In this document: positions 2,979 to 25,193 of the stretch, one piece after another | How the letters are laid out: each line of letters opens with the position of its first letter | Position numbering within the stretch: the first letter of the stretch is position 1 | NCBI GenBank assembly: GCA_016871575.1 | Contig: VHCW01000041.1 | Location: 1 to 38,794 of the forward strand | Length of the DNA stretch: 38,794 nt | From: Verrucomicrobiota bacterium | GTDB lineage: Bacteria > Verrucomicrobiota > Verrucomicrobiia > Palsa-1439 | Direction of reading: 5' to 3' | Position numbers and translations under genes: made by a program | Notes under the pieces: model-generated | Databases searched by the model: none | Seen by the model: the letters and a program-made list of their open reading frames with translations, nothing else | Told to the model about the DNA's origin: nothing

Positions 2979-2979
2979 G

Positions 2980-8417: not shown

Positions 8418-8459
8418 GTTGAAAAAAATGATTGATTCCAGTACACGAGGAACGCGCAC

Positions 8460-9514: not shown

Positions 9515-9517
9515 ACC

Positions 9518-10273: not shown

Positions 10274-10378
10274 GCTGCATTTGGGCATTGCGTTTCGCCG
10301 GCAAACCGGCTAAAGAAAAACCAAGCGAGTTTGCAGTTCCAACAACCAACATTTGTCAACAACGGAGGTATTGTCATC

Positions 10379-12063: not shown

Positions 12064-12109
12064 GGGGTCAATCTCTAAGGGGCTCTAAGGGGTCTAAGGG
12101 GTCAACTCT
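12060..12109. repeat. CTAAGGGG repeat cluster and left inverted-repeat arm
   Basis: CTAAGGGG occurs four times, at 12060, 12075, 12085 and 12094. The cluster ends in GGGGTCAACTCT (12098-12109), whose exact reverse complement AGAGTTGACCCC lies at 13069-13080. The two arms bracket the guaA stub and the MNT/HEPN genes. Confidence 0.6.
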
Positions 12110-12141
12110 CCACAATTGACAGACCAACACCGCAACAAACT

Positions 12142-12267
12142 ATGGAACAAATCATCATCCTCGATTTTGGGTCGCAATACACGCAAGTCATCGCACGGTG
12201 GATGCGCGAGCGCGGTGGAGGCCACGGCTTCCCAAGCCACGGGCAATCTGTTAGGTTTGGCTCATGA
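12142..12267 (+). pseudogene. guaA': Truncated duplicate of the guaA 5' end
   Basis: Bases 12142-12210 repeat the first 69 bases of intact guaA (13730-13798) with 64 matches. The first 53 bases differ at one synonymous position. The encoded start, [19 protein letters not shown], is identical to GuaA for 19 residues, after which the frame diverges and ends at TGA 12265-12267 after 41 codons. The stop overlaps the ATG of the MNT gene (ATGA), so translation of the stub probably feeds the nucleotidyltransferase gene. Sequence upstream of the two ATGs is unrelated. The glutaminase active site and everything after it are missing, so the stub has no GMP synthase function. Confidence 0.85.
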
Positions 12268-12590
12268 AAACTTTGGCTCCAACACTGCTGGATGAGGTCG
12301 TGGAACGGCTGGCAGCGGAGTTTACCCCGGAACAGATCATCCTCTTTGGTTCGCACGCTTGGGGAACGCCGACCGACGACAGCGATTTGGATTTGTTCGT
12401 TGTCGTCTCCGACAGCGATGAATCCTCCTACCGGCGCGATATTCGAGCGCGCCGCTGTCTGCACGGAATGGGGTTGGCCAAGGATGTACTGGTGCGCACC
12501 CGCGCGGAAACCGAACGTTATCGGGGTGTCGTCGCCTCGCTCGAACACAAGATCTTCACGGAAGGCAGAATCTTGTATGAACGAAGCTGA
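12264..12590 (+). CDS. mntA: MNT-domain minimal nucleotidyltransferase (MntA-type antitoxin)
   Basis: This 108-residue protein is a minimal nucleotidyltransferase. The signature is IILFGSHAWGTPTDDSDLDLFVV (about residues 25-47): the GSxAxG nucleotide loop and the metal-binding Asp pair in SDLDL, with a further strand at LAKDVLVRT. In characterised MntA/HepT systems the MNT protein adds AMP to the HEPN toxin and so inactivates it. All catalytic elements are present, so an active enzyme is expected. The start overlaps the guaA stub stop, and its 3' end overlaps the HEPN gene by 14 bases, the usual tight arrangement. It lies in the accessory patch between guaB3 and guaA. Confidence 0.9.
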   Translation: MKTLAPTLLDEVVERLAAEFTPEQIILFGSHAWGTPTDDSDLDLFVVVSDSDESSYRRDIRARRCLHGMGLAKDVLVRTRAETERYRGVVASLEHKIFTEGRILYERS

Positions 12591-12987
12591 ACGCAACTTG
12601 GTCCAGCAATGGCTGGTGAAAGCCAAGCACGACCTCGCTGCGGCGCAGCTCATTGCCGGCGCTGCTGATCCGTACCTGGACATGGCGCTGTTTCATCTCC
12701 AGCAAGCGGCTGAAAAAGCAGTCAAAGCTTATCTCGCCTTTCGCAATCAGCCGTTCCGCAAAACCCACGACATGGAGGAACTCGTCAGCTTGGCCGCCAC
12801 GTTGGACGCACGTTTCGAGGCATGGATCGAACCGGCTGATGATTTGACGCCATTTGCCACCGACTTCCGCTATCCCATGATGCGGGAACTGACCCGCGCC
12901 GAATACGACCAAGCCCTTCAAACTGCACAGAACCTATTTGCCTTCGTGCTTTCAGTGCTGCCAGCCGAGGTCCATCCGACACCATGA
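12577..12987 (+). CDS. HEPN-domain protein, partner of the MNT gene
   Basis: This 136-residue all-alpha protein is of HEPN type (PF05168-like). The first helices carry VQQWLVKAKHDLAAAQLI, followed by MALFHLQQAAEKAVKAYLA and the family segment PFRKTHDMEELV, with FRYPMMRELTRAEYDQAL near the end. The start is ATG 12577, overlapping the MNT stop region. HEPN partners of MNT are usually RNase toxins with an Rx4-6H motif. Here the only nearby candidate is an Arg seven residues before the His of KTHD, which is slightly too far, so RNase activity is uncertain and it may belong to the THD-type subgroup. With the MNT gene it forms a toxin-antitoxin or nucleotide-responsive pair. Confidence 0.88.
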   Translation: MNEAERNLVQQWLVKAKHDLAAAQLIAGAADPYLDMALFHLQQAAEKAVKAYLAFRNQPFRKTHDMEELVSLAATLDARFEAWIEPADDLTPFATDFRYPMMRELTRAEYDQALQTAQNLFAFVLSVLPAEVHPTP

Positions 12988-13048
12988 GCGACCCCCATCT
13001 CGGCTGCCAAGACTACCACCCAAAACAACCGCTAACCGGAGGGGATAA

Positions 13049-13126
13049 GTGAGCGATTTACAGTTTACAGAGTTGACCCCGAAACCTCCCAGAGTTGACC
13101 CCGAAACCTCCCCGAAACCTAAATGA
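13049..13126 (+). pseudogene. Truncated, diverged copy of the next gene's 5' end
   Basis: GTG 13049 follows a strong GGAGGGG site (13038-13044) by four bases and opens a 25-codon frame that begins (M)SDLQFTELTPK. The intact gene at 13123 begins MNDLQLQELTPK, identical at 9 of 12 residues although the codons differ widely. The stub ends at TGA 13124-13126, overlapping the intact ATG, so it may act as a leader that couples translation. A 22-bp tandem repeat (13068-13089, 13090-13111) shifts its frame. Confidence 0.6.
13068..13120. repeat. 22-bp tandem direct repeat with partial third copy
   Basis: Exact copies at 13068-13089 and 13090-13111 begin CAGAGTTGACCCC, followed by a partial copy at 13112-13120. 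The segment AGAGTTGACCCC at 13069-13080 is the right arm of the 12-bp inverted repeat whose left arm is at 12098-12109. Confidence 0.75.
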
Positions 13127-13689
13127 ATGATCTCCAACTTCAAGAATTAACTCCGAAGATCACTCCCGAAGCGTTTTATGAGGCATTCAGGAAAGCCGCT
13201 TCCGAGGTGTTCAGTAAACCTGATGCCGCCAGTTATTCTAGAGGACAGATGACGGAGTTGGTAACATCCGATGCGGGAGTCTTTACTCGTACCATACAGT
13301 TGCTGGGACGACCAGAGCTTGAGGGGCGTGGTGAACTTTACAAGATCGACTATACAATCTACGACAAGCGACCAATTATTGGAAACAAGGTTGAGTATCG
13401 GCAGCCCATTTACGTACACGCACTGATTGAACATGAACTTGGCAGGAATCCAGAAGAGGAGTTTTGGAAGTTACTACATCATTATGCACCCTTGAAAGTG
13501 CTAGTGTTTTATTCTGACGTACCGCAACAATTCCTTGATGGTTTTGCATCCACATATCATCAAGTCTCGTCATTTCACCCACGTGTTGCTTCCGAGCAAT
13601 ATCTTCTAATTTGTGGGAATCCAAATTGGAATGGACGCGACTGGGTCGCTTGGAGAACTTCAGACTTTCACGACTTAAAACCTCTGTGA
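13123..13689 (+). CDS. Putative PD-(D/E)XK nuclease-like accessory protein
   Basis: This 188-residue protein is of uncertain family. The segment YKIDYTIYD, then IYVHALIEHEL, then EEEFWKLLHHYAPLKVLVFY resembles restriction-endonuclease-like proteins in which an acidic strand and an (A/L)IEHE helix precede a lysine-containing KVLVxY strand. There is no signal peptide or membrane segment. The gene is visibly more AT-rich than its neighbours and uses codons such as TTA, ATA and AGA, which suggests transfer. It lies directly before guaA, and its own N-terminus is duplicated upstream. A defence or toxin role is inferred from family resemblance and context only. It could instead be an uncharacterised non-catalytic member. 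Confidence 0.6.
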   Translation: MNDLQLQELTPKITPEAFYEAFRKAASEVFSKPDAASYSRGQMTELVTSDAGVFTRTIQLLGRPELEGRGELYKIDYTIYDKRPIIGNKVEYRQPIYVHALIEHELGRNPEEEFWKLLHHYAPLKVLVFYSDVPQQFLDGFASTYHQVSSFHPRVASEQYLLICGNPNWNGRDWVAWRTSDFHDLKPL

Positions 13690-13729
13690 ACTTAACCGGT
13701 AAAACCACAGAGAACCGTAAATAATCACC

Positions 13730-13798
13730 ATGGAACAAATCATCATTCTCGATTTTGGGTCGCAATACACGCAAGTCATCGCGCGGCGGGTTCGCGAG
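13730..13798 (+). repeat. Right copy of the guaA-start direct repeat
   Basis: This is the partner of 12142-12210, with 64 of 69 positions identical. Recombination between the copies would delete 1588 bp and restore a single guaA start. Confidence 0.85.
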
Positions 13799-15277
13799 TG
13801 CCAGGTGTTCTCGCAAATCCTCCGTTACGACACGCCGGCCAGCAAACTGGCGGAGTTGCAGCCGTCGGGCATCATCCTCTCCGGTGGGCCGTGCAGTGTG
13901 TATGACAAGAAAGCGCCGCATTGCGATGCCGGCCTCTGGCAGCTTGGCATTCCGATTCTTGGGATCTGCTACGGGATGCAGTTGATGGCGCACCAACTCG
14001 GCGGGAAAGTCCAGCGTGGGGACAAACGCGAGTACGGCCCGGCCGAGATCGCCATCGAAAAGGACACGACGCTGTTCCGCGAGATGGCGTACGAGCAACA
14101 GGTCTGGATGAGCCACGGCGACAAAGTCACAAAACTCCCGGATGGCTTCAAGACCATCGCGAAGAGCGGCAACTCGCCATTCGCCGTCATCGCCGATGAC
14201 AGCCGGCAGCTCTACGGTTTGCAGTTTCATCCCGAAGTCCATCACACGCCCAACGGCAAACAGGTGCTCTCCAACTTCATCCACGGCATCTGCCGGTGCG
14301 GTCGGAACTGGACGATGAAATCGTTCATCGAACGCAGCATTGAGGACATCCGCGCGAGGGTCGGCAAGGACAAGGTGCTTCTTGGATTGTCCGGCGGCGT
14401 GGACTCCAGCGTGGCGGCGGCGTTGCTGCACAAGGCCATCGGCAAGCAGTTGTTGTGTGTGTTCGTCAACAACGGCGTCCTGCGCAAAGGCGAAGCCGAA
14501 GGCGTTCAGAAACTGTTTGGGCGCGGTCTCGGCATCCACTTGCACTACGAGGATGCGACCAAGGTGTTCCTCCGCCGGCTCAAGAGCGTCGAGGACCCGG
14601 AACGCAAACGCAAGATCATCGGGCGCACCTTCGTCGAGGTGTTCGACAACGCGGCAAAGAAGGCCGCGAGCAAGGCTCGCGGCTACAGGTTTTTAGCGCA
14701 GGGCACGACCTACCCGGACGTCATCGAGAGCATCCCCATTGCCGGTAACCCGGCGGCGATGATCAAATCACATCACAACGTCGGCGGCCTGCCGAAGAAG
14801 ATGCGGTTCGAACTGCTCGAACCGCTCCGTCAATTGTTCAAGGACGAAGTCCGGGAAGTCGGCGCCCAACTCGGTCTGCCGAAAGAAATTGTCTGGCGGC
14901 AGCCGTTCCCCGGTCCCGGTCTTGCCGTTCGCATCCTCGGCGAAGTCACGGCGGAGCGAATTGCTGTGTTGCAGGAGGCCGACTGGATCATCATTGACGA
15001 GATGAAGAAGGCCGACCTCTACTACAAGATCTGGCAGACGTTTGCCGTGCTGTTGCCGGTGAAGTCGGTGGGCGTGATGGGTGACGAACGCACCTACGAG
15101 AACGCCGTTGCCATCCGCGCCGTGCACAGCGTGGACGGCATGACCGCCGATTGGGTCCGGTTGCCCTACGACCTGCTGGCAAAGCTCTCGACGCGCATCA
15201 TCAACGAAGTCAAAGGCGTCAACCGCGTCACGTTTGACATCTCCAGCAAGCCGCCCGCCACCATCGAGTGGGAATAA
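13730..15277 (+). CDS. guaA: GMP synthase (glutamine-hydrolysing)
   Basis: This 515-residue protein is the standard two-domain enzyme converting XMP to GMP with ATP and glutamine. The class I glutamine amidotransferase domain has the nucleophile Cys80 in [17 protein letters not shown] and the His/Glu pair in [11 protein letters not shown] (near residue 165). The ATP-pyrophosphatase domain has the P-loop [14 protein letters not shown] (near 217-230). The C-terminal dimerisation part ends in [15 protein letters not shown] as in other GuaA proteins. The gene is intact. No clear ribosome site precedes its ATG, and its first 69 bases are duplicated 1588 bp upstream, so its original leader probably stayed with the stub. 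It is convergent with the DUF1080 gene downstream. Confidence 0.97.
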
Positions 15278-15290
15278 TCGAAGACCCGCA

Positions 15291-15914
15291 TCAAGGAAGC
15301 GGTTTGACAAAGATGTCTTTGTAAAAAACGGTGCTCTTCGGGTCGTGACCTTGGAGGCAGAAGGTGCCTTCGGAGAGACGGCGGCCGGGCATTTTCGCCG
15401 GCGGTTCCCAGTCGGCCGGTTCGGTGAACTCGGCGGTGGTCTTGCCGTTGATTGTCACGACGATCTTTTTGCCTTCGACCTTGATGTAGTAGTCGAACCA
15501 CTCGTTGTCCTTGGCCGGCGCGTTGTTGAGCACGTCCTGAATCGCATAGATGCCGCCGGTTTTTTTCACGTCCTTGTGGGAGGTGTTGACCTGGCACTCG
15601 TAGCCTTTGCTCGGCCAGCCTTTGTCTTGGAACTCAGTGTGAATGTAGATGCCGGAGTTGGAACCGGGCGTGGTCATCACTTTCGCTTTGAACTCGAAAT
15701 TCTTGAACTTTGCCTTGCCGTCCGCGCCGAGATAGAACAGGTGGGCGCGACCGCCGCTGACTTTGAGCGTGCCATTTTCGACGCTGAAGCAACCGGCCAC
15801 TTCGTCGTTGGATTTCCAGCCGTTGAGGGTTTTACCGTCGAACATCGAAATCCAACCGCGGTCCGCTGCACACGCTGCTGCTGTCATGAGTAAGGAAAGA
15901 AAGATATGTTTCAT
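15291..15914 (-). CDS. Secreted DUF1080 protein (3-keto-disaccharide hydrolase family)
   Basis: This 207-residue protein has a signal peptide (MKHIFLSLLMTAAACAADR) followed by one DUF1080 domain. The domain opens with WISMFDGKTLNGWKSNDEV and contains NFEFKAKVMTTPGSNSGIYIHTEFQ and the closing strands VTINGKTTAEFTEP and VFYKDIFVKPLP. It is a concanavalin-like beta-sandwich, widespread and expanded in Verrucomicrobiota and Planctomycetes. Some members act on 3-keto-glycosides and others bind polysaccharide. It is last in a minus-strand operon, 36 bases after the large multidomain gene. The specific substrate is unknown. Confidence 0.92.
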   Translation of the reverse strand: MKHIFLSLLMTAAACAADRGWISMFDGKTLNGWKSNDEVAGCFSVENGTLKVSGGRAHLFYLGADGKAKFKNFEFKAKVMTTPGSNSGIYIHTEFQDKGWPSKGYECQVNTSHKDVKKTGGIYAIQDVLNNAPAKDNEWFDYYIKVEGKKIVVTINGKTTAEFTEPADWEPPAKMPGRRLSEGTFCLQGHDPKSTVFYKDIFVKPLP

Positions 15915-15950
15915 GACGGTCTTGTACTCGAAGAGAGATGGTTTGTCGAG

Positions 15951-18900
15951 TTACTGCGTCACGCGGAGATGGATGAAACGTTTGGGACGGTCGGCCACGG
16001 GATGTTGGTCGCGGACGGTGATGGTGCGCCATGAGCCATTGACGGTGTTGCTGACCACAACGGTCTCGGCGCTGGTCCAGTCGGGAACAACGAGGTCGTT
16101 GGCGACTTCGACGGCGTAAGTGAGGCCGGGCGGCGCGGGTTCGGGTCGCGTGTAGGTCAACGTCAGGTACGTTTGACCGGAAAGATTGGTAGTGCTGGTG
16201 AGGAGATGGCCTTGATAGCCGTTGGTCATCGCGTGCAAACCAAGAGCGTGTTTCATCAGGTTGGGGATGCCGTCGCCGGCAGGAGTGGCTGTGGATGCGC
16301 CGTTGCCGGAACCGTCGGTGGGCAATCCATTGTCGGCGCACCATTGTTGATAAGCGGAGTAGGTGGCGGCAGTGGCAATGGCTGAATACTCGGAAACGCC
16401 CCAACTGTTGGTGGCGCAGACGCGATACTCGTAGGTCGTGCCGGCGAGGGCAGTGGCATCGGTGTACGCGGTGATGTTGCTGACAGTACCGGCGATGGTG
16501 TCGAACGTTCCTGACAATGGACGGCGTTGAATCGAGAAGTTGTCGGCGCTGTTGCCGGGGTCTGTCCATGAAAGATTGACGCGGTTGGTAGCGGCTGGCG
16601 CCGCGGCAAGGTTCGCCGGAACAACGGGCAGTACATTGGTCGTGATGGAGACATTGCGGAAGGTGGCCAACTGGAAATCTCTCAGGTTGGGGTCGGAATA
16701 GTGGAACAGTCCCCAGTAACAAACAGACGGGGCGGTTTGCGTGATGTTGGTCAACGCAAGCCAGTGGACGCCGTTGGAGGATGTTTCGGCTAAGAAGTTG
16801 TTGCCAAGCCGGGCGAGGCGGAGCCAGTAGGGAGCCTTGTTCGTGTTGCTGGTGCTGGGCAGATACGTGACACTGCCGCCACTGGCGCTGCGATAGCCGA
16901 GTTTGGCGCCGCTGTTGTCGCCGGGCAGCCAGAGCAAGGCCATCGTGGCAGTGCTGGCGAGGTTGCTGCGCATCATGAGGCCATAGCGCGCGGTGGTCTG
17001 TACGGGCAGCGGCGCTTCGACCTTTGCGGTGAGGAGCACGTTGTTGGTCATCACTTGGTAGATGAACCGCAGCTCATCATCAGTGGAGATGCCGCCGCCG
17101 TAGATGCTGGAGCCGATGACGCCTTCGGCGGAGACCGCGGGACCGTAGTCAGTCGGCGCACCAACGATGGTTTGTTGCCACGGCGGCGCGAGCGTGGCGG
17201 TGGCGTCCTCGATGAGGACAAGGGTGTTGGTGCCGAGCGCAACGCTGGCGCCGCCGGTGGGTGTCTTGGCGATGAGTTTGAAAGAACGGGGCAGTTGCGG
17301 CTGGCCGATGTCGAGCAACGGAACATTGATGGTTTGTTGTGTGATGTCGCCGTCGGCGAATGTCATGGTGTTGGAGAAACCCGTGTAGTGCGTGCCGGCG
17401 AAAGCGGAGATATTGGTGGTGTAACAGAGGACACTGACAGCGCCGTTGCTGCCGCCGTACCGTGTCAGGGAAATAACAGCGTTGCCGGCGGATTTGTCCA
17501 CGTGCAGGATGGATGTCGGCAGTTCGAGGAACCCGGTGTTTCCGTCCGCGTACACTTCGTTGGACGGCGCGGAATCGCCGGTGTCACCGGTGGCGATGAC
17601 GCGATAGTAGAAGATCGCGCCGGCTGGCAACGGTCCGGTGTCGGTGAAGGTGTTTGTGTTTGCACTGACGGTGGCGATGGCGACAAAGTTGGCGCCGGGG
17701 CCGTCGCGGCGTTCGATGCGATAACCGGTTTCGTTGTTGGCGTTGTCCTTCCAGTTGAGAACGATTTCCGTCGCGGCTGGGATCGTGACTTGCAGGCTGG
17801 TGGGATTGCGGGGAGCACTGCTCCCGGCGGTGAAAGTGACAAACGCACCCTGACTGAGGTTCTGGAAAGTGCCCCCCGGCACGGTTTCGAGTTTCAGGAC
17901 GCGAACCATATAGGTGTAGGTGGACCCGGCGGTGACCGTGTCGTCCACAAAGAAAGTCAAACCGTACCGCAGGAAGTTGGTGGTCAGCCGTGTGAATGGG
18001 ACATTGGGAGAATCCGCACGGAACACGTGATAGCCCATGACTCCGGTCATCAGGCTCCAATTCAACCTCACCGCGCCGCTGCTGTTGACTGCAGTGAGAT
18101 TTTTGGGTGGAGGAACCGCATAAAACCGCAGGGCTGGGTCGCCCACCAATCCCACATGCACACCGCGCGTGGAGGAACCGTAGTACTGGTAACCGCTGGA
18201 CGAGTTGTTCTGCGAAAGACGCGCAGCATAGCCGATGGTTTCGCCCATGCCCATGTGATGCAGGAACCAGGAAGGGCGCCCCGACCAGAAACAGGTCAGG
18301 CCATAGGAATTGCCGCGGGCATTGCCGGCGAGGGGGGCGCGCAGGAAGACGTTCGCCCGGTCCCAGTCGCCGAAATAGCTGCCGAACAGGCTGGTGAAAA
18401 CGGCCCGGCTTGGTTTGTCGCCGAAATCAGCGGAACTGCCAACGGTGCTTGCGCCTTCATAATTGCCGCCTCCGTTGCCGTAGGCGAACAGGTAGGTGCT
18501 GGTTTCCGGTCGAATGAACCATTCACCGGAGGAGATCGCATCCCAGGCCGTGGATGTGCGTCCAATAGCGCTGTAAATCGCGCCCCATCCACTCGCTGCA
18601 AAACGCTCGCCGCTAAAATAACCAAATCCGTCCCGCAACATGGCCCGTCGCTCGATGTTGCCGTAAACGCCTTCGCAGTGGCGGTACTCGTGGGCCTTGT
18701 GCAGGTAACGGCGCAGCAGATTGGTCTCGGTGACGGCTGCCGTGGGAAACTTGGTCATGTTGGCCATGTCCACCCGTCCGACCTGCAACTCAAGGTCGCT
18801 GGGGATGCTGGATTGGTCGAACTTGCCGTCGCCGGGCTGGTTCCAGTTGCGCCGGTCGGAGCCGTTGGTGCTGGTTATCGAGGTGTCTGTCCAGTTGCCG

Positions 18901-19628
18901 TTGATATCGCCGTAAAATCCGAGTGCCGGCCATGCGCCGTAGTGGTCGCCGTGGCCGTCGGGAGCAATGCTGCCGGAATAGGGCACGGGTGTGCGCCCCA
19001 AGAGATAGACGGCTTTCACGTTGGCTGGGTCGGCGTTGTAGTTGGAAACAATGAGGCTTTTCACGTAAGCCAGTTCGTTGGAGCGCGTGGCCCAGAAGAT
19101 CGAATTCGTTTCCGATGGCGCGACAGTCATGCGCGGCACATCGTGGCGGATGACGCTCCAACCGTCGCCCACGAGGTCTTGCTGAAGTTGTGACAATTCC
19201 GGCGCGAGCGCGTTGGTCATTGAATCGTCCACGATCAAAATGAGTTTGCCGCGATCCTCGACGAACGGCACATTGACCCCCGCGATGAGATATCCGTCGG
19301 CTCTGCCGGCATACACATTCAACTTGCGAGCCAACCAATACTCATACTCGATGCCCTCGCTGACGGAGGAATCCACGAAACTCGTGGTATTCGTTGTCAA
19401 CGCGTTGGTCACCGTCCAACTCGACTCGCCTTTCAATCGCCGATAGAGCGTCTGCGACGTGATGTTGGCGGTCAAACGCAATGACCAGTTCAACTCGATC
19501 TGCGCCGGGTTGGTCGAAACGGTCGCCCCCAAGTCCACGACAAAATCCTGACACACCTGCGCTCCCGCTCTGCTGGCACACAACGACAATAGGCTGGCCA
19601 TCACAATGACAAAGCGGTGTCGGGTCAT
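15951..19628 (-). CDS. Large secreted multidomain protein (gingipain-like region, FN3 and Calx-beta domains)
   Basis: This protein has 1225 residues. A signal peptide (core FVIVMASLLSLCASRAGA) precedes a fibronectin-III-like domain. Residues ~120-490 resemble the C25/gingipain-like regions of large secreted proteins (KLILIVDDSM, VYLLGRTPVPYSG, DGHGDHYGAWPALGFYGD). The usual catalytic HG and Cys contexts are not recognisable, so activity is doubtful. Next come FN3 domains near 505-600 and 605-690, a Calx-beta-type domain near 700-800, a concanavalin-like module near 805-990 (YGLMMRSNLAS, WLRLARLGNNFLAETSSNG), another FN3 and a C-terminal ~90-residue region. No sorting signal is obvious. The start overlaps the stop of the upstream DUF1080 gene. 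It is probably an extracellular adhesin or polymer-degrading protein. Confidence 0.75.
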   Translation of the reverse strand: MTRHRFVIVMASLLSLCASRAGAQVCQDFVVDLGATVSTNPAQIELNWSLRLTANITSQTLYRRLKGESSWTVTNALTTNTTSFVDSSVSEGIEYEYWLARKLNVYAGRADGYLIAGVNVPFVEDRGKLILIVDDSMTNALAPELSQLQQDLVGDGWSVIRHDVPRMTVAPSETNSIFWATRSNELAYVKSLIVSNYNADPANVKAVYLLGRTPVPYSGSIAPDGHGDHYGAWPALGFYGDINGNWTDTSITSTNGSDRRNWNQPGDGKFDQSSIPSDLELQVGRVDMANMTKFPTAAVTETNLLRRYLHKAHEYRHCEGVYGNIERRAMLRDGFGYFSGERFAASGWGAIYSAIGRTSTAWDAISSGEWFIRPETSTYLFAYGNGGGNYEGASTVGSSADFGDKPSRAVFTSLFGSYFGDWDRANVFLRAPLAGNARGNSYGLTCFWSGRPSWFLHHMGMGETIGYAARLSQNNSSSGYQYYGSSTRGVHVGLVGDPALRFYAVPPPKNLTAVNSSGAVRLNWSLMTGVMGYHVFRADSPNVPFTRLTTNFLRYGLTFFVDDTVTAGSTYTYMVRVLKLETVPGGTFQNLSQGAFVTFTAGSSAPRNPTSLQVTIPAATEIVLNWKDNANNETGYRIERRDGPGANFVAIATVSANTNTFTDTGPLPAGAIFYYRVIATGDTGDSAPSNEVYADGNTGFLELPTSILHVDKSAGNAVISLTRYGGSNGAVSVLCYTTNISAFAGTHYTGFSNTMTFADGDITQQTINVPLLDIGQPQLPRSFKLIAKTPTGGASVALGTNTLVLIEDATATLAPPWQQTIVGAPTDYGPAVSAEGVIGSSIYGGGISTDDELRFIYQVMTNNVLLTAKVEAPLPVQTTARYGLMMRSNLASTATMALLWLPGDNSGAKLGYRSASGGSVTYLPSTSNTNKAPYWLRLARLGNNFLAETSSNGVHWLALTNITQTAPSVCYWGLFHYSDPNLRDFQLATFRNVSITTNVLPVVPANLAAAPAATNRVNLSWTDPGNSADNFSIQRRPLSGTFDTIAGTVSNITAYTDATALAGTTYEYRVCATNSWGVSEYSAIATAATYSAYQQWCADNGLPTDGSGNGASTATPAGDGIPNLMKHALGLHAMTNGYQGHLLTSTTNLSGQTYLTLTYTRPEPAPPGLTYAVEVANDLVVPDWTSAETVVVSNTVNGSWRTITVRDQHPVADRPKRFIHLRVTQ

Positions 19629-20425
19629 TTCGGTTTCAATCGAACGTTACGGAAATGAATCTCAGTCCCCTCGGAGGTCAACAAAATCTTCCCGCCAACC
19701 ACTTCACAGCCGGTGGCCCGGTTCACGAGTTTGCCGTTGACCGTCTGCGTGATCGTCGGGCCGTCCACGACAGCTTCGAGCGTGTTCCACTCACCAGCGG
19801 GTTTCTCGGCGTCGGCCAACCGCTTGAGATGACGCAACACGCCAAACGCGCTTTGCGGCGTCACTTTCAGCCGGTCCGTCGGTCCGCTGAATTCGTAGCC
19901 GCGAATCGCCCAGACATCGCCGGCGGCGCCCTGATTGAGTTGGCACTCGAAACAGCGCGGCCAGATGGCGTGCTCGCCCGTCATCCGCACCAACACGCCG
20001 CCTTTGCCGCCCGTCGCGCCGGCCGGGTACCGCCACTCGACGCGCAACGTGAAATTCGTGTAGCTCGCTTCCGTGTAGAGGTAGCCGCGCGGCTGGCCTT
20101 TGCAGACCAGCACGCCATCCGGTTGCAACCGCCACACATCACCTGTTGTTGCGCCCTCTTTCTCGTGAAACGTTTTCCAACCGTCAAACTCGCCGTCTGC
20201 CCGCTGTGCCGTCAACAAGTTGCCCGCTATAGGCGCGCGGCCTCCAACAGGATCGGTTCTCCGAACGCCGGCGAGGATGCAACATGTACCCGTCCCGGCC
20301 TGTACGTCGCATTCGCCGGGCAGTTTCTTGATCTGGGAAGCGTTGCTGGATTCCGCCGGGGACCGGTGTGCAGGCAGCAGGATGAACAACGAAAACACGA
20401 CGCCGCAAAACAGGAGTTTGTTCAT
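19625..20425 (-). CDS. Secreted DUF1080 protein with an atypical N-terminal segment
   Basis: The start is ATG 20425, which begins a signal peptide (MNKLLFCGVVFSLFILLPAH); upstream in-frame codons run through the promoter region. The 266-residue product has a clear DUF1080 domain from GEFDGWKTFHEKEG through VWRLQPDGVLVCKG, FTLRVEWRYPAGATGGKGGVLVRM and FECQLNQG to the final IHFRNVRLKPK. Between the signal peptide and the domain lies an odd Cys- and Pro-containing stretch (plus-strand 20215-20345) that replaces the usual FDGKTLDGW opening and does not look like DUF1080. It may derive from an in-frame insertion. The gene heads the minus-strand operon and its stop overlaps the start of the large multidomain gene (ATGA). 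Confidence 0.82.
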   Translation of the reverse strand: MNKLLFCGVVFSLFILLPAHRSPAESSNASQIKKLPGECDVQAGTGTCCILAGVRRTDPVGGRAPIAGNLLTAQRADGEFDGWKTFHEKEGATTGDVWRLQPDGVLVCKGQPRGYLYTEASYTNFTLRVEWRYPAGATGGKGGVLVRMTGEHAIWPRCFECQLNQGAAGDVWAIRGYEFSGPTDRLKVTPQSAFGVLRHLKRLADAEKPAGEWNTLEAVVDGPTITQTVNGKLVNRATGCEVVGGKILLTSEGTEIHFRNVRLKPK

Positions 20426-20434
20426 GGGGCATGA

Positions 20435-20463
20435 ACCATATTCGAAACCATCTGATTGCGCAA
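20435..20463 (-). promoter_or_regulatory. Candidate promoter of the DUF1080/multidomain operon
   Basis: On the minus strand TTGCGC (20463-20458), a 17-base spacer and TATGGT (20440-20435) resemble a sigma-70 promoter. The start would fall nearly on the ATG at 20425, and no ribosome site is visible. The -35 element overlaps the dyad at 20458-20472. Confidence 0.4.
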
Positions 20464-20472
20464 GAATTGCGC
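20458..20472. promoter_or_regulatory. Perfect dyad, candidate enhancer-binding or operator site
   Basis: GCGCAA, GAA, TTGCGC is a perfect six-base inverted repeat. Another TTGCGC half-site lies at 20486-20491. The dyad centre is about 108 bases upstream of the predicted sigma-54 start, the usual position for an enhancer-binding activator, and it also covers the -35 of the divergent promoter. Confidence 0.45.
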
Positions 20473-20546
20473 GGAGACGAAAATGTTGCGCAGAGGTTGC
20501 ACAGCGCGCTTGACATTTCTCTCGGTAAATAGGCGTGTGCGACGGA

Positions 20547-20562
20547 TGGCACGGTCCTTGCA
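20547..20562 (+). promoter_or_regulatory. Sigma-54 (RpoN) promoter
   Basis: TGGCAC (20547-20552), five bases and TTGCA (20558-20562) match the -24/-12 consensus TGGCAC-N5-TTGCW at every position. Transcription should begin near 20573, leaving a leader of about 39 bases with a GGAAAGGA ribosome site at 20595-20602 before the ATG at 20612. Confidence 0.8.
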
Positions 20563-20611
20563 GAGAGACCTCAGCGTCAACCAATCAACCAATCGGAAAG
20601 GAATAGATTCA

Positions 20612-21199
20612 ATGAACGCAAACAAAATCGTCTCACTTTGCAGCGTCGCTGCGGTCCTCACCTTGGGCAGCGGCATGTTAGTGGCGCAAGACAATACCCC
20701 GCCCCAGCGCCCGCCCGGCGGGGAAAAAAGCGGTGATCGAAACGGCGACCGCGACCGGGGCCGCAGCCGGTTTGATCCCGCCGAGATCCAAAAACGCATC
20801 TCGGAAAGCATCAAGGACCGCCTCGGATTCAAGGACGACGAATGGACTGTCGTGCAACCGCTGGTGCAGAAGGTCATGGATTTGCGCCGCGACACGTTGA
20901 TCGGCGGTTTGAGCGGTTTCCGATTCGGCAGCCGTCCCAGCAGCGATGGCAAATCATCATCCAAGGGAAGTTCAGAAGGAAGCCGGAGTCCTTGGTTCAC
21001 GCCCAGCCCCGAAGCCGAGGCGTTGCAGAAGGCGATTGACGACAACGCGCCCGCCGCGCAGGTGAAGGCCGCGCTCGACAAATACCGCGCTTCCAGAAAA
21101 GACAAGGAAGCACAGCTCGCCGCCGCGCAGGAAGACCTCCGCAAGGTCCTGACGGCGCGCCAGGAAGCGCAGGCGACATTGATGGGAATGCTGCCGTAA
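20612..21199 (+). CDS. Periplasmic LTXXQ/ZraP-like protein
   Basis: This 195-residue protein starts at ATG 20612, with a ribosome site about ten bases upstream. It has a signal peptide (core VSLCSVAAVLTLGSGMLVAQ), a Pro/Gly/Arg-rich charged linker, and a helical region (IQKRISESIKDRLGFKDDEW, VQPLVQKVMDLRRD). The C-terminus, LRKVLTARQEAQATLMGMLP, resembles the LTxxQ hallmark of CpxP/Spy/ZraP-type periplasmic chaperones or metal sensors, although the match is loose. It sits directly behind a consensus sigma-54 promoter. In E. coli zraP is also sigma-54 dependent, which strengthens but does not prove the analogy. Only 34 bases separate it from gspE, so the promoter may serve the whole secretion operon. 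Confidence 0.6.
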   Translation: MNANKIVSLCSVAAVLTLGSGMLVAQDNTPPQRPPGGEKSGDRNGDRDRGRSRFDPAEIQKRISESIKDRLGFKDDEWTVVQPLVQKVMDLRRDTLIGGLSGFRFGSRPSSDGKSSSKGSSEGSRSPWFTPSPEAEALQKAIDDNAPAAQVKAALDKYRASRKDKEAQLAAAQEDLRKVLTARQEAQATLMGMLP

Positions 21200-21233
21200 G
21201 CGGCAACACCCCGGAAAGACTGGCGACAGGTTT

Positions 21234-22943
21234 ATGAGTGACGCACTCACACAAAGTTTGTCTCTCGACCAACTGCTCAGCCAGATGGTCGCGGCCAAGC
21301 AACTGTCCGTGCCTGACGCGGAACTGTTGCGGCGCGGGCGGCAGTCTGTCGCCGGCGAGGAGGACGTGCTTCGCTGGCTCGCGAAAGAATACGGACTCGC
21401 CTTCACCATGCTCGACGACCTCGAACCGGACCGCGAGCTTCTCTCATTGTTCCCCGCGCGCATTCTCCTGAAGGAAGAATTGCTCCCGCTGCGCCGCGTC
21501 AATGGCACCGTCCAGATCGCCACCAGCCGGCTGTTCGCCACGCAGGGACTCGACGCGCTGAAAACCCTCACCGGCCTCCAACTCCAACCGGTGCTTGCCA
21601 CCGGCGAAGTCGTCCAGCGCGAAATCAAACGCCGCCTCGGCGTCGGCGCCGACACCATCGGCACGCTCGACGAGGAGAAAACCTTTCAGGTCGTTGATGA
21701 AGGCGAGGAACAGACGGATCTCGACACCGGCATAGAGGACGAAGCCTCCATCATCCGCTTTGTCAACCAAGTCCTCAAGGACGCCATTGACCTGCGAGCC
21801 TCCGACCTCCACCTCGAACCGTTCGAGGACGAGTTCCGGATTCGCTACCGCATTGACGGCGACTTGCAGGACATTCCCGTCCCGGCGCAACTCAAGCGGT
21901 TCCAGCCGGCCATTGTGTCGCGCATCAAAATCCTCAGCCACCTCAACATCGCCGAGAAGCGGTTGCCGCAGGACGGCGCCATCAAGATTCTCGTCGGCGA
22001 CGCTGAGGTGGACATCCGCGTTTCCATCATCCCGATGATCCACGGCGAGGCGGTTGTCATGCGCTTGCTGAGGCAGAACGTGACGTTGCGCGGCATGGTC
22101 CAACTCGACATGGCGCCGCGCGAATACCAATGTTTCCAGCGCGTCCTTCGCCTCCCGCACGGCATCATCCTCGTCACCGGCCCGACCGGCAGCGGCAAGA
22201 CCTCGACGCTCTACACCGCGCTCGGCGAGATCAACGACACCATCCGCAAGATCATCACCGTCGAGGACCCGGTCGAGTACCGGCTCAAAGGCGTCAACCA
22301 AATCCAGGTCTCCGAGAAATCCGGACTCACGTTCGCGCGCGGCCTGCGTTCGATTCTCCGCCACGACCCCGACGTCGTGCTCATCGGCGAAATCCGCGAC
22401 CAGGAAACCGCGCAGATTGCCGTCCAAGCCTCGCTCACCGGCCACTTGGTCTTCTCGACACTCCACACCAACGATGCCCCGACCGCGTTCACCCGTTTGG
22501 TGGACATGGGCGTTGAACCGTATCTTGTCGCTTCCTCGGTGGAAGCCGTGCTCGCCCAGCGTCTCGTCCGTGTTCTCTGCGAGCAATGCAAGCAACCCGA
22601 CACTTCGCCCGCCGCGCAAGCGTTCAAAGCGAAAGTCGGCATCCCCGCCGACGTGACGATTTACAAATCCGTTGGCTGCCGCGAGTGCCGCAACACCGGT
22701 TTCCTTGGCCGGCACGCCATCTTCGAGTGGTTGGACACCGACACCGAGATTCGCAAACTGGTTCTGCAAAACGCCTCGACCGACCAACTCCGCGACGCCG
22801 CTCGCCGCGGCGGCATGAGCACGCTGGCCGAAGACGGCTGGCGGCTTGTGCGCGCAGGTATCACAACCGTCGAAGAAGTGTTGAGCGTCACCACGGCGAA
22901 AGAAATCGAACGCACGACAAAGACGAAGACGAAGGGATCATGA
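21234..22943 (+). CDS. gspE: Type II secretion ATPase GspE (PilB-like)
   Basis: This 569-residue cytoplasmic hexameric ATPase powers pseudopilus assembly. An N-terminal T2SSE_N/MshEN-type region (residues 1-140) is followed by the catalytic domain: Walker A GPTGSGKTSTLYTAL near 315, Asp box EDPVEYRLKGVNQIQV, Walker B VVLIGEIRDQETAQIAVQA near 380-395, and the His box TGHLVFSTLHTND. A tetracysteine zinc site is formed by CEQC near 449 and CREC near 482. All motifs are intact. It is the first core gene of the operon. The gspF partner would normally follow directly but is displaced by an inserted toxin-antitoxin cassette. Confidence 0.96.
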   Translation: MSDALTQSLSLDQLLSQMVAAKQLSVPDAELLRRGRQSVAGEEDVLRWLAKEYGLAFTMLDDLEPDRELLSLFPARILLKEELLPLRRVNGTVQIATSRLFATQGLDALKTLTGLQLQPVLATGEVVQREIKRRLGVGADTIGTLDEEKTFQVVDEGEEQTDLDTGIEDEASIIRFVNQVLKDAIDLRASDLHLEPFEDEFRIRYRIDGDLQDIPVPAQLKRFQPAIVSRIKILSHLNIAEKRLPQDGAIKILVGDAEVDIRVSIIPMIHGEAVVMRLLRQNVTLRGMVQLDMAPREYQCFQRVLRLPHGIILVTGPTGSGKTSTLYTALGEINDTIRKIITVEDPVEYRLKGVNQIQVSEKSGLTFARGLRSILRHDPDVVLIGEIRDQETAQIAVQASLTGHLVFSTLHTNDAPTAFTRLVDMGVEPYLVASSVEAVLAQRLVRVLCEQCKQPDTSPAAQAFKAKVGIPADVTIYKSVGCRECRNTGFLGRHAIFEWLDTDTEIRKLVLQNASTDQLRDAARRGGMSTLAEDGWRLVRAGITTVEEVLSVTTAKEIERTTKTKTKGS

Positions 22944-22945
22944 GA

Positions 22946-23061
22946 ATAAATCCGAAATCCGAATCTCGAAATCCGAAACAGATTCGAATGACCAAAGCGG
23001 CAATTCGAATTTCGGATTTTCCGCGTTGTTTCGGATTTCGGATTTCGGATTTCGGATTTTC
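22946..23061. repeat. TTCGGAT-type repeats forming a long imperfect hairpin
   Basis: The gspE-gspF spacer begins with AATCCGAAATCCGAA-type repeats and ends with about four TTCGGATTTCGGAT repeats in the opposite orientation, so the two halves can pair over more than 30 bases. There is no T-tract terminator. A related set occurs at 23868-23955. Confidence 0.7.
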
Positions 23062-23068
23062 CTGAGCC

Positions 23069-23100
23069 ATGCCCACATTCACCTACAAAGCAATCGGCGC
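23069..23100 (+). pseudogene. gspF': Truncated duplicate of the gspF 5' end
   Basis: These 32 bases repeat the first 32 bases of intact gspF (23961-23992) with a single mismatch and encode MPTFTYKAIGA against MPTFTYKAVGA. Both copies are preceded within a few bases by TTCGGATTTTC. Similarity ends ten bases before the end of the antisense toxin gene. The frame stays open for 296 codons through the antisense cassette, but that translation does not resemble GspF and is probably meaningless. Confidence 0.8.
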
Positions 23101-23110
23101 AGTGGCGGCG

Positions 23111-23464
23111 TTAGATCACAACCTGCACCGACTGAGGGTCGAGTTCGACGAGGGAGTTGTTTTGGAGGGCGGCAATGATCGCCGGCAGGTGCCGTTCGAC
23201 CAGCGCGGTCAGATCGCGAGTGCGGATGTTGCCGGTGCGAATCAACAACAGTTTCCACGGTTCGCCCCGCTGGAGATGGGAGTAAAAGAAGTCAGTGTCC
23301 TTGGTAATCACCACGCGGTGCTCCGCCACGGAGAACGCGTTGATCACGTCGTCGGTCGTGGCATTGTAGGCTGGCAATTGCCGCGTGTGAACGGCCTCAT
23401 GCCCGGCAGCTTGGAGCACGCCGCACAACCTTGGCGGCAGGTGCGCATCAACGAGGAATCTCAT
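23111..23464 (-). CDS. DUF5615 PIN-like toxin-type protein
   Basis: This 117-residue protein starts at ATG 23464, overlapping the DUF433 stop (ATGA). It opens with MRFLVDAHLPPRLCGVLQAAG and continues with HEAVHTRQLP, then VVITKDTDFFYSHLQRG and KLLLIRTGNI. These are the acidic residues and strands of the Mut7-C/PIN-like DUF5615 family: Asp in LVDAHLP, and Asp pairs in DDVI and TKDTDF. Members pair with DUF433 antitoxins in VapBC-like modules and are presumed RNases. The module lies antisense within the gsp operon, between the two copies of the gspF start. Toxicity has not been shown. Confidence 0.9.
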   Translation of the reverse strand: MRFLVDAHLPPRLCGVLQAAGHEAVHTRQLPAYNATTDDVINAFSVAEHRVVITKDTDFFYSHLQRGEPWKLLLIRTGNIRTRDLTALVERHLPAIIAALQNNSLVELDPQSVQVVI

Positions 23465-23694
23465 GAAAGCGCCAAGTGCAGGCTCTTTTGTTTGAGCGAT
23501 GCCGCCGCAAACTCCAGACACGCACGGAGATCATCGCGTTCCAAGTCTGGGAACTCGCGCAACAAATCCTCAAAGCTGTCTCCCGCCGCGAGGTATTCAA
23601 GGATGGTTTCGACGGGATACCGCAGGTGGCGAATGGCCGGTTTGCCGTGGCAAATCGCCGGGTCAATCGTGATGCGAGACAGCAGTGCGTTCAT
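23461..23694 (-). CDS. DUF433 antitoxin-type protein
   Basis: This 77-residue protein starts at ATG 23694; a GTG at 23706 would add four residues. The DUF433 core reads RITIDPAICHGKPAIRHLR, then YPVETILEYLAAGDSFEDLL, then FPDLERDDLRACLEFAA, a winged-helix-like fold that usually serves as the DNA-binding antitoxin. The usual GGKPxIRGTR is here HGKPAIRHLR. It precedes the DUF5615 gene with a four-base overlap, the typical order. It probably autoregulates from a promoter in 23695-23760, though none was recognised. Confidence 0.9.
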   Translation of the reverse strand: MNALLSRITIDPAICHGKPAIRHLRYPVETILEYLAAGDSFEDLLREFPDLERDDLRACLEFAAASLKQKSLHLALS

Positions 23695-23960
23695 GACGAG
23701 AGACACTAGCTTTCCGATGCACCAGTTGTCAAGTTGTGGCAGTCCATTGTTTCACGCCAAGGCTGTCATTCTGGGCGCAGCGAAGAATCTCAGTTTTTCC
23801 TTCCCGGAACGACAGAGGCCCTTCGCTTCGCTCAGGGTGACAGGCTTTGAAGAACAGCCGTTTTGGTCATTCGGATTTCGTGCTTGTTTCGGATTGCCGC
23901 ATACGACAGTGGCGTCTCGTCGGACTCGGCTTCGGATTTCGTGCTTCGGATTTTCTTAAA
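23695..23960. other. Intergenic region between the TA cassette and gspF
   Basis: These 266 bases carry no supported gene. They hold the upstream region of the antisense DUF433 gene, a palindromic dispersed repeat (23764-23842) and TTCGGATTTCG-type repeats (23868-23955) that run up to the gspF ATG. No ribosome site is seen before gspF. Confidence 0.7.
23764..23842. repeat. REP-like palindromic element (TGTCATTCTGG...GGGTGACA)
   Basis: The element begins TGTCATTCTGGGCGCAGCG and ends with CTTCGCTTCGCTCAGGGTGACA-like sequence, which are imperfect inverted repeats of each other (TGTCAxxCTGxGCGxAGCGAAG). The same motif family is dispersed in many bacterial genomes as a small non-coding repeat. Confidence 0.7.
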
Positions 23961-23992
23961 ATGCCCACATTCACCTACAAAGCAGTCGGCGC
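23961..23992 (+). repeat. Right copy of the gspF-start direct repeat
   Basis: This is the partner of 23069-23100, with 31 of 32 positions identical. Recombination between the copies would remove 892 bp containing the DUF433/DUF5615 pair and restore gspE-gspF. Confidence 0.8.
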
Positions 23993-25193
23993 GGACGGCG
24001 CTCTGGCGGAAGGCCAGATTGACGCCGGGAGCCGGCCGGAGGCGTTTCGTCAAATGGAAACGCGCGGGCTGCGGCCGGTGAACCTTGCGGAGAAGACAGC
24101 CAGTGAGGACGAAAGCAATGCGCCAGCAGCGTTTTCCTTCAAGTTGCAGTCGCACAAGATCACGGCGAAGGCGCTGGAGAATTTCACGCGACTGCTGTCG
24201 AGCTTGCTGGCGGCGGGCGTTGCGTTGAGCCGGGCGCTGGTGATTCTGTATCGCGAAGCGAGCACGCCGGTGGCGGGCGCGAAGTGGAAGGAGATTCACG
24301 GTCTGGTCGTGGATGGGATGTCGCTGGCCGACGCGATGGCGAAATCGCCGGAGACATTCCCGCGGGTCTATACGGCGATGGTGGCGGCGGGCGAGACGGG
24401 CGGATTCCTCGATGTGGTGCTGGCGCAGATTGCGGATTTCCAATCGCGCGAGAAGGAACTGCGTTCCAAAGTAATGACAGCGCTGCTTTACCCGGCCATC
24501 CTGCTGGTGCTGGCGCTGGCGGTGCTGGCGTTTCTGCTGGTGTTCTTCATTCCGCGGTTCCAGAAGGTCTTCTCCGGTTTTGGCGGCTCGCTGCCGGTGA
24601 TTACACAACTCATCATCGGCGCCAGCGACTTGTTGCGGTCGTATGGTTTGTTTGTGCTGGTCGGATTTTTTGTCATCGGGCTGATGCTGCGGAGTTGGTT
24701 TGCCTCGGAGAAGGGGCGACGGGTGTGGGAGGGATTGATGTTGCGCGCGCCGCTGGTCGGGCCGCTGGTGGCGCAGTTTGCGATGGCGCGGTTCTGCCGG
24801 ATGCTGGGCACGTTGCTCGGCGCGGGCGTGCCGCTGATCCACGCGCTCAACGTCGCCCGCAAATCCATCGGCAACCAGATTCTGGTGGACGCCGTCTCGA
24901 CCTCGATTGAAGGCGTCCAGGAAGGCGCGCGGCTTGGCCAGAGCTTGGCCAGTTGTCGCGGACTGTTTCCGGGGTCGGTGCTTGAAATGATTTCCGTCGC
25001 GGAGGAAAGCGGGCGGCTCGATGGCGAGTTGATCCGCATCGCGAATGTCACCGAAACCGATCTCGACCGTCACTTGAAGACGGCGGTGGCGTTTGCGGAG
25101 CCGCTGATGCTGTTTTTGATCGCCGGTTTCATCGGGACAATTTTCATCGGCATGTTGCTGCCGATTTTCTCGCTGCAGGAGTACATCAAATAA
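23961..25193 (+). CDS. gspF: Type II secretion inner-membrane platform protein GspF
   Basis: This 410-residue platform protein has the usual length. It has the family N-terminus (MPTFTYKAVGADGALAEG), two T2SSF domains of about 120 residues each (LENFTRLLSSLLAAGVALSRAL and FCRMLGTLLGAGVPLIHALNV, each followed by a GxxLxxAM/GxxLGxSL-type helix) and membrane segments near residues 172-195, 222-240 and 380-400. It connects GspE to the assembling pseudopilus. The gene is complete although a copy of its first 32 bases sits upstream. It has no visible ribosome site, so its expression after the insertion is uncertain. Confidence 0.95.
   Translation: MPTFTYKAVGADGALAEGQIDAGSRPEAFRQMETRGLRPVNLAEKTASEDESNAPAAFSFKLQSHKITAKALENFTRLLSSLLAAGVALSRALVILYREASTPVAGAKWKEIHGLVVDGMSLADAMAKSPETFPRVYTAMVAAGETGGFLDVVLAQIADFQSREKELRSKVMTALLYPAILLVLALAVLAFLLVFFIPRFQKVFSGFGGSLPVITQLIIGASDLLRSYGLFVLVGFFVIGLMLRSWFASEKGRRVWEGLMLRAPLVGPLVAQFAMARFCRMLGTLLGAGVPLIHALNVARKSIGNQILVDAVSTSIEGVQEGARLGQSLASCRGLFPGSVLEMISVAEESGRLDGELIRIANVTETDLDRHLKTAVAFAEPLMLFLIAGFIGTIFIGMLLPIFSLQEYIK

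What the first reader, a model, noticed from the sequence alone, without database searches (positions are those of the whole stretch)
12142..23992. Recurrent start-codon-anchored insertion: a possible undescribed integration mode
Three cases in one window (guaA, the nuclease-like gene, gspF) show a truncated 5' copy upstream of the intact gene. Two of them enclose unrelated toxin-antitoxin modules. Shared rules are: similarity starts at or next to the ATG, the downstream copy is intact, and the copy length is short (32-69 bp). This could be an integration mode in which the incoming DNA carries the target's first codons so that the host gene is restored. It could also be repair-driven duplication. 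The direct repeats would allow reversal, and the toxins would select against loss. No recombinase is encoded here, so the enzyme would act in trans.
Basis: inference. Interest (0 to 1): 0.85.

Follow-up and report, generated by a model that had tools for sequence, protein, structure and literature searches.

The report
Toxin genes wedged into core genes
In this Verrucomicrobiota lineage small toxin-antitoxin gene pairs sit beside ordinary genes with a broken duplicate of one end of that gene left behind, most likely a scar of foreign DNA that recombined into the gene at one side only; the duplicate marks gene ends in general, not start codons.

Summary
The guaA and gspF duplications are real (75 nt, 91%; 32 nt, 97%). 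The third case is a 12-codon match that encloses nothing and lies in a dispersed repeat. Start-codon anchoring fails: in the family's toxin-antitoxin (TA) loci, clear duplications of 3' gene ends (7) outnumber 5' ends (3), and others are intergenic. TA association holds: 13 of 46 toxin loci in this genome are flanked by direct repeats, against 20 of 600 random positions (p=4e-8). For guaA the mechanism shows: the left copy sits at the native site, and the first ~935 nt of the intact guaA resemble another genus (85% to G002, 73% to same-genus G001), the rest does not (breakpoint 0/1000 permutations). That fits homology-facilitated illegitimate recombination (HFIR): homology at one end, an illegitimate joint at the other. 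gspF was hit repeatedly in G001. No Ku gene was found in 11 genomes. Unexplained: the gene fragment lies 0-5 nt from the toxin stop codon in 5 clear cases, though not in weaker ones. Verdict: a new variant of known processes (HFIR, insertion with long target duplication), not an undescribed start-codon integration system.

The parts
10379..11542 (+). GuaB3-type IMP-dehydrogenase-related gene, ancestral upstream neighbour of guaA
   Evidence: NCBIfam TIGR01304; directly before guaA in G002 and G009
11627..11836 (+). HicB-like antitoxin gene, shared with G001
   Evidence: Pfam PF15919; 79% DNA match in G001
12096..12138 (+). native guaA leader, before the truncated copy
   Evidence: 12096-12213 is 83% identical over 118 nt to the leader and start of the single guaA of same-genus G001 (sequences)
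12139..12213 (+). truncated 5' copy of guaA (remnant of the native gene)
   Evidence: 91% over 75 nt
12264..12590 (+). MNT-type nucleotidyltransferase (MntA-like antitoxin)
   Evidence: Pfam PF18765/PF01909; NCBIfam MntA_antitoxin below its cut-off, 36.4 versus 60 bits
12580..12987 (+). HEPN toxin partner
   Evidence: Pfam PF05168 E 2.5e-23
   Evidence: no Pfam, PADLOC or NCBIfam match
13730..15277 (+). intact guaA, mosaic: 5' part to about nt 935 G002-like, 3' part not
   Evidence: NF000848; mosaic scan
21234..22943 (+). gspE
   Evidence: Pfam PF00437
23069..23110 (+). truncated 5' copy of gspF (32 nt at 97%, weaker to 23110)
   Evidence: aligned copies
23111..23464 (-). DUF5615 PIN-like toxin
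   Evidence: Pfam PF18480 E 2e-24
23461..23694 (-). DUF433 antitoxin
   Evidence: Pfam PF04255 E 1.3e-24
23961..25193 (+). intact gspF
   Evidence: Pfam PF00482

Best explanation
These are scars of foreign DNA taken up by one-sided homologous recombination. A donor fragment carried a small TA module next to a divergent allele of a core gene. One end recombined inside the recipient's allele by homology; the other, non-homologous end was joined illegitimately near that gene's end. The recipient keeps an intact (hybrid or donor) gene, the TA module, and a stub of its native gene. Joints that break the gene are selected out, so the stubs are gene ends, 5' or 3'. TA modules are over-represented because they resist loss. 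The stub-TA-gene arrangement then forms a pair of direct repeats, allowing loss, amplification or further rounds at the same gene. Shown here: the duplications, TA enrichment, native position of the guaA stub, mosaic guaA, repeated hits on gspF and glmS. Inferred: uptake route, donor, the illegitimate joint as an event, selection by addiction.
For: guaA mosaic: columns 76-960 are 85% to G002 but 73% to same-genus G001; columns 961-end 82% and 84%; neighbouring guaB 81% and 88%; breakpoint column 935, 0/1000 permutations. The left stub's leader matches G001's guaA leader; G002 and G009 have guaB and guaA adjacent. gspF in G001: three stubs before the intact gene and two dissimilar TA pairs; in stub 2 all 7 differences fall within coding nt 6-30 and none in nt 31-103, 6 of 7 at third codon positions, as after a crossover inside the repeat. 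Differences between stub and intact end mostly at third positions in glmS (4/4 coding), L161 (2/2) and L229 (32/53), as between alleles of two lineages. TA enrichment 13/46 versus 20/600; relatives 7/42 versus 36/600, or versus 13/600 when controls are limited to short pairs of 78% or more. glmS hit independently in G010, no second copy in sister G003. No Ku in 11/11 genomes.
Against: No donor with this TA beside guaA was found; G002 itself lacks it. Protein trees of guaA and guaB both join G000 with G002 (99/99 and 89/93), so gene-level incongruence is weak; only the DNA mosaic shows it, and transfer the other way plus a second event is possible. G010 glmS shows no divergence spike against G003 in the duplicated end. 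Differences by codon position are unremarkable in L165 (7,7,8), L186 (4,4,6 with a frameshift), L046 (2,4,6), guaA itself (4,1,4), L200 (4,0,3) and the window gspF stub (1,2,3). In the G000 glmS case the stub, not the intact gene, holds the apparently derived synonymous states, the reverse of the simple prediction. The short spacing to the toxin stop in the clear cases is not predicted. Uptake or competence genes were not examined.
Confidence: 0.56

Rival explanations
1. Insertion with long target duplication: the TA module inserts by an unknown process that copies tens to hundreds of bp of the target locally, as proposed for restriction-modification genes by Kobayashi and colleagues.
For: Same anatomy: direct repeats of 32-205 nt around addiction modules; no recombinase among the enclosed window genes that matched a family; empty sites in relatives for guaA and gspF. 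Passages on RM units with target duplications of the order of 100 bp seen in PMC3874152 and PMC3031569. L161 (98%) and gspF (97%) could be young exact copies.
Against: Differences between copies are mainly at third positions or clustered in several cases, and guaA is a mosaic of two lineages, which local copying does not give.
Confidence: 0.23
2. Tandem duplication of an intergenic segment by microhomology, with TA genes arriving separately or already present.
For: Stub 2 of gspF in G001 is fused over 4 shared nt to a duplicated gspE 3' end (reversed L040 6732-6735), the mark of a tandem duplication.
Against: At guaA the sequences upstream of the two copies differ. Among the clear gene-end cases a second repeat pair above 36 bits shows only at L169 (a dispersed repeat) and at the G001 gspF locus. 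TA enrichment is unexplained.
Confidence: 0.1
3. A site-specific element integrates at gene ends by an enzyme in trans and restores the gene, as SXT-type elements do at prfC (recalled).
For: Two dissimilar TA pairs in G001 are joined to gspF at nt 48-50, and the stub lies 0-5 nt from the toxin stop in 5 clear cases.
Against: By eye targets and joints share no core sequence (no motif search was run); repeat length varies; 5' ends, 3' ends and intergenic sites are all used.
Confidence: 0.06
4. Assembly artefact of mixed strains in a metagenome bin.
For: The genome is a draft of 257 contigs, and its named relatives are metagenome bins.
Against: The copies are not exact repeats, and the gspF-TA arrangement recurs in another genome of the genus, G001.
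Confidence: 0.05

Closest known systems
Homology-facilitated illegitimate recombination (HFIR), including T6SS effector-immunity arrays of Vibrio cholerae
   Same: One homologous end, one illegitimate end; toxin-type modules stacked in series; older pieces retained (found passages of PMC5361080; listing and start of abstract of PMC3240628).
   Different: Here the cargo is TA pairs beside unrelated core genes (guaA, gspF, glmS), and the scar is a gene-end stub, not an orphan immunity gene. Competence and RecA dependence were not tested.
Insertion with long target duplication (Nobusato et al. 2000, not seen; cited in found passages of PMC3031569 and PMC3874152)
   Same: Addiction-type modules flanked by long variable direct target repeats, without a known mobile element.
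   Different: Cargo is TA rather than RM; copies here are in several cases divergent alleles.
Variable segments flanked by direct repeats in bacterial species (one found passage of PMC2884548)
   Same: 10-18% of variable segments in the species studied there are flanked by direct repeats, read there as a route of deletion.
   Different: Here the repeats are gene ends and are enriched at TA loci; the rate at TA loci (28%) is not far above that range, so repeat-flanked variable segments as such are common.
Minimal mobile elements of Neisseria (search listing only; concept recalled)
   Same: Variable cassettes between conserved genes, moved by recombination in the flanks.
   Different: Here gene-end stubs mark a second, unanchored joint.
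SXT/R391 integration at the 5' end of prfC (recalled)
   Same: Target gene gets a new 5' end.
   Different: No integrase or common core seen.

Membership tests
HFIR | foreign homologous tract at one end of the insert | tested here: met
   guaA mosaic, breakpoint column 935, 0/1000; clustered differences in gspF stub 2 of G001. Not seen at G010 glmS; other cases not tested.
HFIR | illegitimate joint at the other end | tested here: inconclusive
   Left joint of guaA lies inside native guaA after about 75 nt, with unrelated DNA beyond; donor sequence unknown.
HFIR | dependence on RecA and DNA uptake | not testable with these tools
   needs experiment
Insertion with long target duplication | insert flanked by long variable direct repeats, empty site in relatives | tested here: met
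   repeats; empty sites examined for guaA, gspF and G010 glmS only
Insertion with long target duplication | repeats are copies of one target (identical at birth) | tested here: inconclusive
   third-position or clustered differences in several pairs, even spread in others
Insertion with long target duplication | restriction-modification cargo | tested here: not met
   the enclosed genes that were identified are TA families or other small genes
   clear 3' cases L161, L165, L169, L186, L046, L200, L229 against 5' cases guaA, gspF, and gspF again in G001
   tested as repeats around toxin loci: 13/46 versus 20/600, p=4e-8; without the window's two cases 11/44, p=1e-6
Integron cassette array | folding attC-like recombination site | tested here: not met
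   58-nt repeat of L189/L190: 192 of 200 shuffles fold at least as well
Ku-dependent end joining | Ku gene in the genome | tested here: not met
   0 of 11 family genomes, some incomplete; control search positive in Bacillus subtilis

The most novel reading that the evidence does not exclude
TA pairs in this lineage behave as mobile cassettes with a defined end at the toxin stop codon, carrying the terminal 30-200 nt of a core host gene as a homology arm. They circulate as [arm + TA] molecules, integrate by host recombination into the same gene end in other cells, restore that gene, and stack in series. Core gene ends thus serve as interchangeable attachment sites without any recombinase of the element.
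Probability: 0.15. Interest if true: 0.8.

Novelty: new variant of a known kind. Interest (0 to 1): 0.5.

Why it matters
How small TA modules without transposases spread between chromosomes is an open question. Allele-bearing scars next to core genes make it testable: they can show the donor lineage, the crossover and the joint. If addiction modules ride on one-sided recombination at conserved genes, core-gene replacement and TA spread are coupled.

Tried and rejected
Ku-dependent filler-DNA joining: no Ku in 11 of 11 genomes. Integron-like arrays: the repeat does not fold. Gene-tree incongruence of whole guaA: not clear, both trees join G000 and G002; the DNA mosaic test was used instead. A foreign patch at G010 glmS: no divergence spike. 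One strong 3'-end duplication, L074, turned out to be a diversity-generating retroelement and was left out of the scar cases; among the 600 random control cores it was counted (3 draws).

Dropped rows and parts left out. Of 21 non-window repeat pairs printed for the 800-kb G000 sample, 8 lay inside called genes or paired the starts of tandem paralogues, 9 were dispersed repeats (4 or more copies in the sample, some enclosing no called gene), 1 was the retroelement; the remaining 3 (L061 HicAB, L082 RelBE, L093 VapBC) all enclose TA genes (families). In the other genomes, apart from the gspF region of G001, I saw no clear TA among the enclosed genes that I could read (L100, L101, L146, L152, L153); L106, L114 and L141 fell wholly or partly in the cut part, and none of these was scanned against family libraries. 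L044 (33 nt, 82%) fell below the 36-bit line. L202 (32 nt, 84%, 36 bits) is counted as a hit but not among the clear 3' cases. L178 and L180 are tandem paralogues, counted in 13/46 and left out of the 9/42 variant (p=4e-5). L189 and L190 share one repeat. Intergenic or unassigned: L189, L190, L197, L199, L185, L051; in L051 the right copy overlaps the start of an ORF and could be a further 5' case. One search tested 42 relatives' loci: I left out L058 (same place as L056), and one listed PIN match had no locus. Several of the 42 are long PIN proteins that are probably not TA toxins. The spacing control was given 26 of the 33 repeat-free loci; 25 had a next called gene. Controls were drawn from the sampled 15% of the genome, TA loci from all of it. 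The gene caller is my own codon-usage script; it missed the ORF at 13123.

It holds for the 5 clear gene-end cases only; in the weak case L202 the gap is 22 nt, and in unassigned cases it is 27 (L197), 51 (L051), 54 (L189), 72 (L190) and 272 nt (L185). I lowered the novel case from 0.18 to 0.15 for this, and the best explanation from 0.58 to 0.56 because codon positions are unremarkable in more pairs than first told.

Literature: I saw found passages only of PMC3031569, PMC3874152, PMC2654758 (one reference line), PMC5361080 and PMC2884548; PMC2853133 is not held. No paper in the library holds both 'toxin-antitoxin' and 'homology-facilitated illegitimate recombination'. Four hold the direct-repeat wording, 19 'long target duplication', 8 the terms; of most I saw only the listing. 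So absence of this pattern from print is not shown.
Full report
What is there. The window is contig C41 of a 5.19-Mb draft genome. By guaA, its nearest named relatives are uncultured Verrucomicrobiota bins. Repeat search confirms a 75-nt copy of the guaA start (12139-12213, 91%) 1.6 kb before intact guaA, and a 32-nt copy of the gspF start (23069-23100, 97%) 0.9 kb before intact gspF. Between them lie an MNT/HEPN pair with an unclassified ORF, and a DUF433/DUF5615 pair. The third case is a 12-codon resemblance (peptide score reached by 0 of 554 control genes), but it encloses nothing, and its DNA motif recurs at another locus of the genome and in G001.

Ancestral state. In G002 and G009 the guaB-related gene runs straight into guaA. 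In G003 and G010 the gspE and gspF matches lie 254-275 bases apart, about what the unmatched start of gspF takes up, so there is no room for an insert. In same-genus G001 the leader of the single guaA matches the DNA before the window's truncated copy: 83% over 118 nt, start of guaA included. So the truncated copy stands at the native site and the intact gene lies downstream of the insert.

Recurrence at one gene. G001 has the same gspF insertion and more: gspE, a short ORF, gspF stub 1, a dissimilar DUF433/DUF5615 pair, gspF stub 2 fused over 4 shared nt to a duplicated gspE end, a 647-codon ORF, gspF stub 3, the TA pair matching the window's (85%), then gspF. Stubs 1 and 3 end at gspF nt 50 and 48. 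glmS is hit twice: in G000 by a VapBC pair (82 nt, 94%) and in G010 by an exonuclease-like gene (name from reading the sequence; 100 nt, 93%), with no second copy in the sister genome G003.

Is it start-codon anchored? No. I surveyed 46 toxin-domain loci of the genome (27 PIN, 8 ParE, 3 HEPN, 3 HicA, 5 DUF5615). 13 have a direct repeat within 1.1 kb on both sides, against 20 of 600 random cores in the sampled 800 kb (Fisher p=4e-8; without the two window cases 11/44, p=1e-6; also without tandem paralogues 9/42, p=4e-5). In ten relatives 7 of 42 PIN or DUF5615 loci do, against 36 of 600 controls (p=0.017), or 13 of 600 if controls are limited to short pairs of 78% or more (p=1e-4). Clear 5' cases: guaA, gspF, and gspF again in G001. 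Clear 3' cases: L161, L165, L169 (glmS) and L186 in G000, L046 in G001, L200 in G007, L229 in G006. The rest are intergenic, unassigned or weak. The common rule is that the gene beside the insert stays intact, which selection explains.

Where the copies come from. If the repeat were a local copy, stub and intact end would be identical at birth and the stub would then decay at all codon positions. Instead, differences fall mostly at third positions in several pairs: glmS 4 of 4 coding differences, L161 2 of 2 including the stop codon (TAG against TAA), L229 32 of 53, gspF stub 2 of G001 6 of 7. In that stub all 7 differences lie within coding nt 6-30 and none in nt 31-103, as after a crossover inside the repeat. 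Other pairs do not show this: L165 (7, 7, 8), L186 (4, 4, 6 and a frameshift), L046 (2, 4, 6), L200 (4, 0, 3), guaA (4, 1, 4), the window gspF stub (1, 2, 3).

guaA shows the foreign tract directly. Over alignment columns 76-960 the window's guaA is 85% identical to G002, while its six other comparisons are 69-76%, same-genus G001 at 73%. Over columns 961-end it is 84% to G001 and 82% to G002; guaB gives 88% and 81%. A breakpoint scan puts the switch at column 935 (chi-square 27.9, 0 of 1000 permutations). One event, replacement of the first ~935 nt by DNA of a G002-like lineage together with the TA and the ORF, explains both anomalies; transfer the other way needs a second event. Protein trees do not separate these views. 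G002 itself has no TA there, so the donor is unknown.

Mechanism. Homology at one end and an illegitimate joint at the other is homology-facilitated illegitimate recombination, proposed also for stacked effector-immunity modules in Vibrio cholerae (passages of PMC5361080). It needs no enzyme of the element. Ku-dependent joining is unlikely: no Ku in 11 genomes. Selection for an intact core gene leaves gene-end stubs, and addiction plausibly explains the TA excess; both are inference. Insertion with long target duplication, known for restriction-modification genes (passages), has the same anatomy and is the main rival, especially for nearly identical pairs such as L161. Repeat-flanked variable segments as such are common: 10-18% in the species of PMC2884548 (passage).

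What does not fit. In the 5 clear gene-end cases in which the toxin end faces the stub, the stub lies 0, 1, 3, 3 or 5 nt from the toxin stop codon. In 25 TA loci without repeats the gap to the next called gene has a median of about 85 nt (rank test on absolute values p=8e-4; small sample, not quite like for like). But in the weak case L202 the gap is 22 nt, and in unassigned cases 27 to 272 nt, so this may be a feature of gene-end joints only, or chance. HFIR does not predict it. The G000 glmS stub, rather than the intact gene, carries the unusual synonymous states, and G010 glmS shows no foreign patch. At C24 and C127 the same 58-nt repeat brackets RelBE, and C127 has four of them separating three small-gene units, so there the repeat may belong to the element.

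Noticed in passing
L074 (G000:C16) 8725-11212: A diversity-generating retroelement: formylglycine-enzyme-type gene with a variable repeat at its 3' end, small Avd-like ORF, reverse-transcriptase-like ORF and template repeat; 13 of 15 differences are at template adenines. Gene names from reading the sequence.
   Followed up: partly
L190 (G000:C127) and L189 (G000:C24): Array of four near-identical 58-nt repeats, each with a promoter-like TTGACA motif, separating RelBE, a DUF4160/DUF2442-like pair (names recalled) and another ORF; the same repeat brackets RelBE at C24.
   Followed up: partly
L040 (G001:C141), reversed coordinates 4988-5142 and 6732-6886: Duplicated gspE 3' end fused over 4 shared nt to a gspF 5' stub: a tandem duplication junction.
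   Followed up: partly
window 13048-13111, L078 11019, L039: Dispersed motif TTTACAGTTTACAGAGTTGACCCC with runs of TTGACCCC units; its reverse complement resembles the guaA leader.
   Followed up: partly
window 22948-23061 and many other contigs: Dispersed TTCGGATTTCGGATTT repeat family between gspE and gspF, found on both strands elsewhere in the genome.
   Followed up: no
whole genome G000: 27 PIN-domain loci (3 below the family cut-off), against 1 to 6 in each of ten relatives.
   Followed up: no
L103 (G010:C5) 7830-10495: Four related repeat copies matching over 107, 168 and 251 nt, possibly serial insertions.
   Followed up: no
L100 (G010:C2) 1156-3026: 221-nt, 95% duplication of the 5' end of a transporter gene around an ORF that looks like an S1/P1 nuclease (names from reading the sequence), a non-TA insert of the same anatomy.
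   Followed up: no
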